A stretch of DNA of 41,005 bases. It comes from Rhodobacterales bacterium (GTDB taxonomy: Bacteria > Pseudomonadota > Alphaproteobacteria > Rhodobacterales > Rhodobacteraceae). This document shows, one piece after another, positions 9,425 through 15,794 of the stretch (positions are counted from its first letter, which is position 1; every line of letters starts with the position of its first letter). A program made the position numbers and the translations under genes. The notes under the pieces were generated by a model. It searched no databases. It worked only from the letters and a program-made list of their open reading frames with translations, and was not told the origin of the DNA. The stretch covers positions 1 to 41,005 of the forward strand of contig JAPLPF010000117.1 of assembly GCA_026400325.1 (NCBI GenBank), given 5' to 3'.

Positions 9425-9446
9425 TTCACGCTGGGTTCACGCTGGC
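9425..9446 (+). promoter_or_regulatory. Site C: 11-bp direct repeat TTCACGCTGGG TTCACGCTGGC, candidate SARP operator
   Basis: Two TCAC starts at 9426 and 9437, period 11; lies between divergent YcaO (-) and the 9506 gene (+). Confidence 0.55.
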
Positions 9447-9505
9447 CGAAAAGAGTGGCTGCACGGACGCCGACAACCGGCGCCGCGCTACGGGAAGGAT
9501 GCGAA

Positions 9506-9892
9506 ATGAGAGGGTTCTTCAATCTTAAAAGCGGCTCGCTGGTCGATCAGCGAAAGACAGGCGAGGCGGTCATTCGGTTGATCCGCAGCGTCGGTCAGGA
9601 TGTTCCGGGATCGGACTGGAAGGAATTCAAGGCCGATCCGAAGGCCTGGCTGCACAAGGCTGGTTACCGCTATGACGGCCCCGGCGCAGGCCCCGACGGC
9701 GAGGTCCCGGCCAGCGTCACGCTGATCCCGGTCTATGACACCGAGACGACGATGCATGTCCGGGTGCCTTGGAAAGGTGTGCTGGTCCCGGAGGTGATGG
9801 AGCACGCCTTGAATGAAACAAGCTACGGCTCGACCCCCCAGGTACGCTTTCCGGTGCTGCTGGCGCGCTACTTCATGCGCCAGTGTCGATAG
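9506..9892 (+). CDS. Small protein resembling NHLP leader / nitrile-hydratase-alpha-like RiPP precursor
   Basis: 128 aa: ...WKEFKADPKAWLHKAGYRYDG...VPASVTLIPVYDTETTMHVRVPWKG..., which matches the general NHLP layout (DPKA.L...G, V.V..DT...H.V.P); tail NETSYGSTPQVRFPVLLARYFMRQCR. Divergent from YcaO. Confidence 0.5.
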   Translation: MRGFFNLKSGSLVDQRKTGEAVIRLIRSVGQDVPGSDWKEFKADPKAWLHKAGYRYDGPGAGPDGEVPASVTLIPVYDTETTMHVRVPWKGVLVPEVMEHALNETSYGSTPQVRFPVLLARYFMRQCR

Positions 9893-9897
9893 CGACA

Positions 9898-11909
9898 TCA
9901 GGCTTGGGCTTGCTCTGCCATTTGCCGGGCAAGCCGCAGGCCGTCCAGAAGGCTTTTGCGACCCTCGGGCCAGTTGATTGGCAGCATATCCATGACCCAG
10001 GCCTCGATGCTGTCGTCATCGGCTGGCTGGGAGCCCTCCCAGTGCGTCGCTGCAAGCCTGCGAAAGTCCTTGTACGCGGCTACGGCCTCCTGCTTGCGTC
10101 CCAGATGTGCCAAGGCCGCGGCGGCCCATACCCCACGGTCGGGAAACCCCTCATGGCATTTCTCGATGGCGTCGATCGTCGTCCGATGGTCGCCGCCCAT
10201 GAAGCTGATGTTGGAAAGGTATACCGAGTAATACTCGGGGTAGATCGGGTTCAACTGCATGGCCCTTTCAGCCAGCGCTCTTGCGTTGTCGACATGGCCA
10301 AGGAACGCAAGGCCGCAGGCTGCGGCAATCAGGGTCTCGGCGTCGTTCGGGTTCAGATCGGCCGCCATTCGGAATGCGAGTTTGCGCGTTCAGGCGACTT
10401 GGCGATCAGCCAGTTCCAGCCCAGGCTGATGTGGCAACGTGAATCGTAGGGGTCCAGCGAGATGGCCTGCTGCGCGTGACGAAAGGCCGACGCAATGTCT
10501 TCCTTGCGGTGCGGATAGCCAGGACGGACCATTGTGCGGGTGCAAAGAATCTGCGCCAGGCTGGCATGGCTGCCGGCAAGGCCAGGATCGAGGTCGATCG
10601 CCCGCAGGAAAAGCGCCTCGGCCTGAGTGTCGGCTTCAGCGGTCCACAGGCGCGACAGCTGGTGCCCGCGCAGCCAGAGGTCATAGGCCACGGGGTTGCC
10701 CGGCGTGCTGCGGGCATGGCGCAGAAGGGTGATGTGGTTCACCTGGCTGGCCAGGTTCGCAGCAACGGCCCCGGCGACGGAAGAACTGATCTCTTGCAGC
10801 TCATCCTCGGCCACGGGAAAAAGCTTGGACCAGACTTCGCTGCCATCCCGGCAGTCGATCAGCGACACAAAGAGCTTGCCCGTCGGCGACCGCCAGTCCA
10901 GCACGCAGTCCACCGCAAAGTCGGCGTCAGTGGCGCGGCCTAGGGCGGTGAAATCAACCGCGCTGGCAGACTCGAACCCGGTCGCGGGCCAGGGAATGAC
11001 GATCCAGCAACGAAAGCGCGACAGGCAGGCCTTGGCCATGAAGGCGAAACCTTCGCCAAGATAGTCCTTGCTGGCATCGGGGTAGCGCGTCAGCGGCGGC
11101 CGGATCGTGATGCGTGGAGGCCCGTTGCGCGCCGGGTTTGCCAGGGTCGGTGGCGCAGCAGGGCGTTTCAGCGACACCTCGCCGCTTTTGATCGCAACCA
11201 GAAGCGCGTTCGATGCCTCGCTTGGTTCGCTGTCCAACTCGTCCGCCAGCGCCTGCTCCAGTTGCGCGAACTGCCGCAGCGCAGCGGACTGGTCGCCGCG
11301 CAGGGCGTGAAAGCGCATGAGGTACTGGTGGGCAAGCTCATGACTGGGTTCGATCCGCACAAGGTCTTCGGCGATCCGGGTGTCGGTAAAGGCATTGGCG
11401 GCGATCTGTCGTTCCAGATGATCGGTCAAGGCCATGGTCAGGGTCGATCTGAGGTGCGAACGTTCGATCTGCAACCAGGCCTCGAACACCGGGGCGTTGG
11501 GCTGGGCAGGGCCGAAAAGCTCTCCCTGCCAAAGGGCCGCGGCAGCCAGAAGTGCGGTCTGGTCGCTTGCGCCGGCGGCGATCAACTCGCGAAAACGCAA
11601 CACGTCGACCGCAAAATCAGTGCCGCGCAGACCGACAGTGAAGCGGTCGGCCTCAAGCACGTCGCCATCAGGATCCAGCACCTCGCGCAGTTCCTTGAGG
11701 GACTGGCGAAGGCTGCTGCGGGCAAGCTCCTCAGGGGCCGGATCCCAAAGCAGCGAGGCCAGCTGTTCGCGGTTCATCCGAGAGTTCGGACTAAGCAGCA
11801 ACAGACCCAGCAGGCAACGCGTCTTGCGGGTGCGAAAGGCGACCTCCCGGCCATTGGAAAGCCGGACGGCGCGACAGCCTCCCAAAAGCTCGACTTGGAA
11901 TCGCGCCAT
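9898..11909 (-). CDS. SARP/BTAD-type transcriptional regulator with C-terminal TPR domain, interrupted by a frameshift
   Basis: 10353-11909: MARFQVELLGGCRAVRLSNGREVAFRTRKTRCLLGLLLLSPNSRMNREQLASLLW (OmpR-type wHTH) + BTAD. TPR continues in another frame at 9898-10368 (MAADLNPNDAETLIAAACGLAFLGH...). Confidence 0.8.
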
Positions 11910-12012
11910 TTACGCCCGTCCTGGAAACTTGCCCTTGCGTCACGTTGCACATTGGCTGCAAAGCTTTCAACAATGGATCGACTGTTTTCCGCATGTACAG
12001 GAAACTTTCCTC

Positions 12013-14682: not shown

Positions 14683-15324
14683 CTACGTCGGGGTGGGGTG
14701 GGCCAGGCCATGCCAGGCCATGCTGGCCGCAAGAAGGATGAGCGCGATGCCGGACCCGGTGTTGAACCACGTCATCCGCGCGCCTTGTCCAAGCCAGGGG
14801 CCAAGGCGCTGACCGATCGTGCTCCACCCGTAGAACCGAAGCGCCGAGGCGCCGAGGAAGCCTGCAGCAAAGGCCGCCCGGGCGCTGCTTTCCTGGCTTA
14901 TCGCCAGGGTTCCTGCGACAAGGCCGACCTCAAGATAGACCAGCGGGTTGAACCAGGTCACGGACAGCATTCCCAGAACCTCGCGGCGCAGCGAGGATCT
15001 TGCCTGCGCCGGGTCAACGCTGTCTGGCCGCCGGTCGCGACGGCGCAAGGTGCGCAGCCCGCACCACAAGAGGAAGGCGATCCCAAGGGCGTAAAGCGCA
15101 AGGACCGCTTCGGGTGCCCGGTTCAGGATCACTGCCAGCCAGGCGACTGCGGCAAGGAAGATCACGATCTCGGAACAATAGCCGACAGTGGCGATGACCC
15201 AGGCTCGGCCCGCATGGGCACCGGCACGGATCAGGTGAAGGTTCTGCGGGCCGATCGACAGAACAAGACTGGCCCCCACACCAAAGCCGGTGAGAAGCGC
15301 CGCAAGGGCGGTTGCGCTCAGCAT
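14683..15324 (-). CDS. LysE/ArgO-family amino acid exporter
   Basis: MLSATALAALLTGFGVGASLVLSIGPQNLHLIRAGAHAG...TWFNPLVYLE. Confidence 0.85.
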   Translation of the reverse strand: MLSATALAALLTGFGVGASLVLSIGPQNLHLIRAGAHAGRAWVIATVGYCSEIVIFLAAVAWLAVILNRAPEAVLALYALGIAFLLWCGLRTLRRRDRRPDSVDPAQARSSLRREVLGMLSVTWFNPLVYLEVGLVAGTLAISQESSARAAFAAGFLGASALRFYGWSTIGQRLGPWLGQGARMTWFNTGSGIALILLAASMAWHGLAHPTPT

Positions 15325-15626
15325 GGGTCCGGCCCCCGCTGGCGCAGTGGCCGGCCTGCGGTCTCTGCCGGGGTCCGGGTCGGGCGAACGGCGCTGCTGG
15401 CCGCCGCCTTGACTGTCGTGTCGGTCTTTGCCCCGTCCCAGCCGCCAACGGCCGGGCCCGAGGCTGGGGTGGAAGGTTGTGCCATCATGACAGCGCCCAT
15501 CCGAGGCGCCCTAAACGACCGAACCGTGGCAAGGCGCCACAGCCCGCAGCTTTGAAATCGTCCGGTGGCCGCCGTCCTGAAGCTGGCCAAATGCGATGCA
15601 GCGCATGATGCGGAGTGCAGGGTCAT
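15318..15626 (-). CDS. Small Ser/Thr/Ala/Cys-containing protein of unknown function, translationally coupled to LysE
   Basis: RBS AAAGGA upstream of ATG 15626 and ATGCTGA overlap with the LysE start; 102 aa, no recognisable family. Confidence 0.4.
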   Translation of the reverse strand: MTLHSASCAASHLASFRTAATGRFQSCGLWRLATVRSFRAPRMGAVMMAQPSTPASGPAVGGWDGAKTDTTVKAAASSAVRPTRTPAETAGRPLRQRGPDPC

Positions 15627-15702
15627 GGAAATGTCCTTTGGGAAAAGACGGATGTCGGTCAGGGCGCTGGAAATTGCAGCGCCGACCCAATCCTTGCGCA
15701 AC

Positions 15703-15734
15703 CGCCGTGACCGCGACGTGAGCCGATCGTGAAC
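15703..15734 (-). promoter_or_regulatory. Site B: triple TCACG direct repeat, 11-bp period
   Basis: Minus strand GTTCACGATCGGCTCACGTCGCGGTCACGGCG; GTGA (plus) at 15707, 15718, 15729; 23 of 32 positions identical to Site A. Confidence 0.6.
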
Positions 15735-15762
15735 GCGGCGTCCCGGCTTGCCGTGCTGCCAA

Positions 15763-15794
15763 TTCCCGACCGCATCACGACGCCTTCACGAAGC
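15763..15794 (+). promoter_or_regulatory. Site B': TTCCCGACCGC-ATCACGACGCC-TTCACGAAGC, 11-bp period direct repeat facing the plus-strand genes
   Basis: TCAC at 15775 and 15786, with a degenerate TCCC at 15764. Confidence 0.5.

What the first reader, a model, noticed from the sequence alone, without database searches (positions are those of the whole stretch)
9425..15794. Four TCACG direct-repeat sites with exact 11-bp period: a putative SARP operator family across the cluster
Seen: GTGA at 14563/14574/14585 and at 15707/15718/15729, TCAC at 15775/15786 (plus degenerate 15764), and TCAC at 9426/9437, all with exact 11-bp spacing. Sites A and B share 23 of 32 bases. Each reads TCACG toward its downstream gene (permease operon, small ORF-LysE operon, secreted protein-decarboxylase operon, NHLP-like gene), about 65-110 bp upstream of the start codon. 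Established: SARP/BTAD regulators bind heptameric direct repeats one helical turn (11 bp) apart, and a SARP/BTAD gene sits in the middle of the cluster. Inference: one regulator controls all four transcripts.
Basis: partly seen in the sequence, partly recalled or inferred. Interest (0 to 1): 0.88.

Follow-up and report, generated by a model that had tools for sequence, protein, structure and literature searches.

The report
SARP operators across a YcaO–peroxidase cluster
Short DNA repeats spaced exactly one helix turn apart sit in front of four gene groups in this bacterium; the same repeats recur at matching places in related gene clusters of other alphaproteobacteria, which makes them very probably the landing sites of the cluster's own activator protein, of a kind best known from antibiotic-producing Streptomyces.

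Summary
Four intergenic sites (9425-9446 +, 14557-14589 -, 15701-15733 -, 15763-15795 +) carry two or three NTCACG units at exactly 11 bp. The triple repeat occurs nowhere else in the 3.56-Mb assembly. TCACG-N6-TCACG occurs eight times, five of them here; the other three lie within long open frames. The motif is conserved: 19 of 19 orthologous loci (Tabrizicola, Rhodobacter, Pseudorhodobacter and relatives) carry it upstream of the small "NHLP-like" gene. Over these loci TCACG pairs peak at period 11 (31) against 4 or fewer at any other period. A -10-like hexamer follows at a fixed distance that puts the repeats at -27/-38, the register published for AfsR. The operators recur in four distant SARP-YcaO-peroxidase clusters (SARP 25-31% identical) whose SARP keeps the SLRQ recognition helix, and are absent from five whose helix has diverged. 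The SARP reading is therefore supported. Additions: the site-A/B operon probably runs through eamA into the SARP gene (positive feedback); site C has a third, degenerate unit; the window's SARP has a one-base frameshift removing its TPR end; "NHLP" is not supported by any profile. Binding and activation are untested.

The parts
9425..9446 (+). Operator D: TTCACGCTGGG TTCACGCTGGC, two units, upstream of the small YcaO-linked gene
   Evidence: conserved in 19 of 19 orthologous loci
9451..9456 (+). candidate -10 hexamer AAGAGT (GATAGT/AATAGT in relatives), 15 bp after the first base of the 3' unit
   Evidence: information peak at +16 and +20; inferred, no transcription start mapped
9506..9892 (+). 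small 128-aa protein ('NHLP-like'), candidate RiPP precursor with a conserved C-terminus ARYFMRxCR
   Evidence: no Pfam or NCBIfam match
14557..14589 (-). Operator A: TTCACGCGCTC CTCACGCCGCG GTCACACAAGG, three units, upstream of permease-eamA-SARP
   Evidence: not found in L041, where the lysE-permease gap is only about 70 bp
15701..15733 (-). Operator B: TTCACGATCGG CTCACGTCGCG GTCACGGCGGT, three units, upstream of small ORF-lysE(-permease-eamA-SARP)
   Evidence: counterparts in L041 (lysE) and in L061, L069, L073 (eamA-SARP)
15690..15695 (-). candidate -10 (AAGGAT) of the site-B promoter
   Evidence: register, inferred
15763..15795 (+). Operator C: TTCCCGACCGC ATCACGACGCC TTCACGAAGCC, two good units and one degenerate unit, upstream of the secreted protein-decarboxylase operon
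   Evidence: same three-unit form in L041, L061, L069, L074
15801..15806 (+). candidate -10 (AACACT) of the site-C promoter
   Evidence: register, inferred
10353..11909 (-). SARP/BTAD regulator (518 aa here; 643-725 aa open frames in most orthologues because of a 1-base difference near 10360)
   Evidence: Pfam BTAD 2.7e-14; AfsR 5.7e-7 by sequence; AF2 best PDB match AfsR
12013..13095 (-). EamA-family efflux transporter, just upstream of the SARP gene
12975..14468 (-). amino-acid/amine permease
14683..15324 (-). LysE-family exporter
15896..16207 (+). small predicted secreted protein
   Evidence: homologues at 36-65% in relatives behind the same operator
16179..17465 (+). PLP-dependent decarboxylase, histidine-decarboxylase type
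   Evidence: NCBIfam NF002748 332 bits, above its cutoff of 305
8300..9409 (-). YcaO-domain protein, divergent from the small gene
6600..8276 (-). animal-haem-peroxidase-like protein

Best explanation
The repeats are operators of the cluster-situated SARP (window 10353-11909). Shown by sequence: each promoter holds two or three NTCACG units on one face of the helix, 11 bp apart, and a -10-like hexamer 15-16 bp after the first base of the last unit. Inferred: SARP protomers bind side by side, one per unit, cover the place of the missing -35 element and dock sigma and RNA polymerase, as AfsR does, so that the small gene, the lysE/permease/eamA genes and the secreted protein-decarboxylase operon are switched on together. 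Because the eamA gene leads into the SARP gene, the site-A/B (eamA) promoter probably also raises SARP itself, giving positive feedback.
For: Uniqueness in the genome. Conservation at the same promoter in 19 of 19 orthologous loci, with exact 11-bp period against 4 or fewer pairs at any other period. The small gene and its operator occur only in genus genomes with the SARP orthologue. A at +16 (24 of 31) and T at +20 (19 of 31) place the units at about -27 and -38, the positions of AfsR T-27 and T-38. Operators recur in distant SARP-YcaO-peroxidase clusters G036, G109, G520 and G661 (SARP 25-31% identical), all with the helix [SGA]SLRQ; the best pair in G036, G520 and G661 is reached in 0 of 200 shuffles (18 of 200 in G109). 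Clusters G007, G348, G275, G102 and G210, with diverged helices, lack them. The AF2 model matches AfsR in its initiation complex best.
Against: No binding or expression data. AfsR's base-contacting T88 and R92 correspond to Q69 and E73 by hand alignment, so recognition is not inherited unchanged. The -10 element is weak at site A and shifts by one base at several promoters. The window's own SARP gene carries a frameshift, so the regulator may be impaired in this strain, or the assembly wrong. The helix-operator association rests on about ten clusters, and the G109 site alone is weak.
Confidence: 0.86

Rival explanations
1. The sites are boxes of a global OmpR/PhoB-family response regulator, which also use direct repeats one helix turn apart, and the cluster merely joins that regulon.
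For: OmpR/PhoB-type winged helices also bind 11-bp direct repeats (own knowledge); the SARP DNA-binding domain is itself OmpR-like.
Against: No intergenic match elsewhere in the genome, as a global regulator would need. Sites track the cluster and the SARP helix. The -27/-38 register is that of AfsR.
Confidence: 0.08
2. The SARP binds these operators but represses, with release on a signal sensed by its TPR domain.
For: Repeats overlap the -35 region, where a bound protein could block RNA polymerase.
Against: The promoters have no recognisable -35 and a poor -10, as expected of activator-dependent promoters; the AfsR register is that of an activator.
Confidence: 0.05
3. Chance or compositional repeats.
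For: High-GC genome in which CACG/CGTG words are not rare.
Against: Shuffles, genome-wide counts, conservation and the spacing histogram all exclude it.
Confidence: 0.01

Closest known systems
AfsR and the afsS promoter of Streptomyces coelicolor (PMC10936776; PDB 8hvr, 8k60)
   Same: wHTH + BTAD + TPR regulator; two 11-bp direct repeats with the key T at -38 and -27, over the -35 and close to a poor -10; TTCAGC-like unit against TTCACG here
   Different: AfsR has a NOD ATPase domain and is an actinobacterial global regulator; here the middle is a different, TolB/CadC-like region by weak fold matches; unit is TTCACG; three units at some promoters; base-contact residues differ
PimR-type SARP-LAL operators (PMC5930380)
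   Same: Three heptamers with 4-bp spacers; at least two units needed for binding
   Different: PimR site lies upstream of the -35; consensus CGGCAAG; different C-terminal domains; Streptomyces
HilA of Salmonella (own knowledge, no paper found)
   Same: Proteobacterial regulator with OmpR-type domain and BTAD-like region, and direct-repeat box
   Different: Virulence regulator, other consensus; not compared by tool here
PhoB/OmpR-family response regulators
   Same: Winged helix; tandem repeats one helix turn apart
   Different: Receiver domain and kinase, global regulon; no receiver domain here

Membership tests
SARP/BTAD regulator (AfsR-SARP family) | N-terminal OmpR-type winged helix followed by BTAD | tested here: met
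   BTAD 54.2 bits against cutoff 22.1; Trans_reg_C 22.9, just under its cutoff of 26.2; AF2 model best match AfsR and EmbR; AfsR by sequence 5.7e-7
SARP operator | direct repeats 11 (or 22) bp apart | tested here: met
   31 pairs at period 11, 4 or fewer at every other period
SARP operator | 3' repeat 8 bp from the -10 element, over the -35 region | tested here: met
   A+16 and T+20 peaks in 31 promoters, with one-base shifts in some; rule from PMC10936776; -10 inferred from sequence only
SARP operator | at least two units per site | tested here: met
   two or three units at every site
SARP (pathway-specific activator) | located in and restricted to its biosynthetic cluster | tested here: met
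   no intergenic site elsewhere; co-occurrence
SARP (pathway-specific activator) | binds the repeats and activates transcription | not testable with these tools
   needs EMSA, footprint and in vitro transcription
AfsR itself | NOD ATPase domain and base contacts by T88 and R92 | tested here: not met
   no NOD match in Pfam; Q69 and E73 at those places, hand alignment
NHLP leader peptide (small gene) | match to an NHLP profile | tested here: not met
   no Pfam or NCBIfam match at E up to 5

The most novel reading that the evidence does not exclude
An uncharacterised alphaproteobacterial family of SARP-YcaO-haem-peroxidase clusters, spread over several bacterial families, makes a modified peptide. 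In the Tabrizicola/Rhodobacter branch the precursor would be the 126-128-aa protein with the conserved ARYFMRxCR end, and all branches with an SLRQ-helix SARP share one operator code, TTCACG-N5-NTCACG.
Probability: 0.45. Interest if true: 0.7.

Novelty: new member of a known kind. Interest (0 to 1): 0.55.

Why it matters
SARP operators are described mainly from Streptomyces. Here is a proteobacterial SARP with a predicted operator code conserved over distant clusters, with AfsR-like register, and with natural helix variants that lack it. It marks out the transcription units of an uncharacterised YcaO-peroxidase cluster, predicts which regulator to express to switch it on, and offers an operator tag for finding further members. 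It also gives a direct test of how far the AfsR sigma-docking mechanism extends beyond actinobacteria.

Tried and rejected
Other 11-bp heptamers in the clusters with diverged helices (L082, L098-L101): no convincing family found. Class-wide search with the L104 YcaO gave nothing. Several class hits of the window's YcaO have 780-1076-aa open frames and were set aside without inspection. No paper in the library links YcaO with SARP and peroxidase, or SARP with Rhodobacteraceae, or TTCACG repeats with alphaproteobacteria. Site A as a conserved site: in L041 the lysE-permease gap is only about 70 bp with no equivalent, so site A looks like an addition in the window's lineage. Triple TCAC matches elsewhere in the genus were not followed.

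Full report
OBSERVATION. Reading the sequence confirms every repeat at the stated place. In one orientation the units are: D, TTCACGCTGGG TTCACGCTGGC (9425-9446, +); A, TTCACGCGCTC CTCACGCCGCG GTCACACAAGG (14557-14589, -); B, TTCACGATCGG CTCACGTCGCG GTCACGGCGGT (15701-15733, -); C, TTCCCGACCGC ATCACGACGCC TTCACGAAGCC (15763-15795, +). The triple TCAC pattern at period 11 is found twice in the window (0.01 expected) and nowhere else in the 3,555,218-base assembly. The TCACG pair is found eight times, five of them here; the other three lie within long open frames.

CONSERVATION. The SARP orthologue is present in 13 same-genus genomes at 79-83% identity; record titles name Tabrizicola, Rhodobacter and Pseudorhodobacter. 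The small gene is found in 12 of these and in no genome without the SARP; in the thirteenth the contig ends at the SARP (L023). In 19 of 19 loci that include the small gene, the two-unit operator precedes it, usually as TTCACGCTGGC ATCACG. Over 312 kb of these loci, TCACG pairs number 31 at period 11, in all 19 loci, and at most 4 at any other period, with small rises at 22 and 33. A weight matrix separates operators (pair score 16.9 or more) from most background.

ARCHITECTURE. Most Tabrizicola loci have only SARP, small gene, YcaO and peroxidase, with one operator. In L061, L069 and L073 a three-unit operator precedes eamA-SARP; in L061 and L069 a divergent operator faces the secreted-protein gene. 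L041 and the window have added lysE, permease and a histidine-decarboxylase-type gene (NF002748 above cutoff). L041 keeps B and C in diverged form, including the third units (TTCACG GTTACG CTCACA; TTCCCG TTCACA ATCACG), but no A. The operator thus seems to have been kept at the core promoter and reused as genes were added; this is inference. Since eamA and SARP lie close in one direction, the site-A/B (or eamA) promoter probably drives SARP too.

REGISTER. Aligning 31 promoters on the last unit, information rises again at +16 (A in 24 of 31) and +20 (T in 19 of 31), the two strongest positions of a -10 hexamer at +15 to +20. That puts the first base of the units at about -27 and -38. In the AfsR complex the base-specific contact is to T-38 and the corresponding T-27, and SARP repeats generally lie 8 bp from the -10 (PMC10936776). 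In several promoters the hexamer is one base further. The small-gene promoters are related to each other, so the counts are not independent.

WHICH PROTEIN. The window's SARP has a BTAD domain, matches AfsR at 5.7e-7, and its AlphaFold model finds AfsR in its initiation complex first and EmbR next. The helix corresponding to AfsR alpha-3 reads ARSSLRQ in nearly all orthologues; R68 and R75 match phosphate-contacting R87 and R94, while Q69 and E73 replace T88 and R92 (hand alignment). More distant SARP-YcaO-peroxidase clusters give an independent check. G036 (L087), G109 (L104), G520 (L134) and G661 (L138) have SARPs 25-31% identical, all with an SLRQ helix, and all carry 11-bp TCAC operators, mostly beside YcaO or peroxidase genes and often in divergent pairs. 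In L134 and L138 the best score is reached in 0 of 200 shuffles, in L087 0 of 200, in L104 18 of 200, so L104 rests more on its two adjacent divergent sites. Five clusters whose SARP helix has diverged (G007, G348, G275, G102, G210) show none near the cluster, and two YcaO-peroxidase clusters with no SARP found beside them also none (L135, L136). Counting the ortholog group once, 5 of 5 against 0 of 5 (exact probability 1/252, my arithmetic). The first operator-bearing distant cluster (L087) and the first negatives were seen before the helices were compared; L104, L134 and L138 came after, and agree. The clusters are few and were found in part by YcaO similarity.

CAVEATS. No binding or expression experiment exists. 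The window's SARP lacks one T against relatives (CATTCC for CATTTCC), which ends the frame at 518 aa and leaves the TPR end in another frame; this may be an assembly error. The small gene has no NHLP profile match; its nearly invariant C-terminal ARYFMRxCR beside YcaO suggests, but does not show, a RiPP precursor.

VERDICT. Observation confirmed, interpretation supported. It is a new member of a known kind, SARP operators, outside actinobacteria, with an unusually clean comparative case.

Noticed in passing
G000:C127:15004-15034 (L105), with L106, L107, L110, L111: A second BTAD regulator of the same genome (557 aa, helix SGSLRQAL) has TTGACGCAGAATTCACG about 60-70 bp upstream of its own start, conserved in five genus genomes: a likely autoregulatory site with the same 11-bp unit.
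   Followed up: partly
9506-9892: The small YcaO-linked protein family (68 relatives) has a nearly invariant C-terminus ARYFMR[KQH]CR, a possible RiPP core or recognition tail.
   Followed up: partly
10353-10370: One-base deletion relative to orthologues truncates the SARP at 518 aa; L041 also has a stop or frameshift in its SARP.
   Followed up: partly
L098, L099, L100, L101, L082: SARP-YcaO-peroxidase clusters with diverged SARP recognition helices and no TTCACG operator; their operator, if any, was not found.
   Followed up: partly
L104:6566-15082: In G109 the divergent operators face YcaO-peroxidase-244-aa protein on one side and, on the other, two large proteins (833 and 892 aa) that look amidase-like and trypsin-like/endonuclease-like by eye.
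   Followed up: no
15318-15626 (- strand): A possible ORF of about 102 aa between operator B and lysE overlaps the lysE start; conservation in L041 is partial.
   Followed up: partly
L087:5805-5826: A further strong operator (TTCACGAATTG TTCACGGTTTG) lies about 2.8 kb from the SARP in G036; its target gene was not identified.
   Followed up: no
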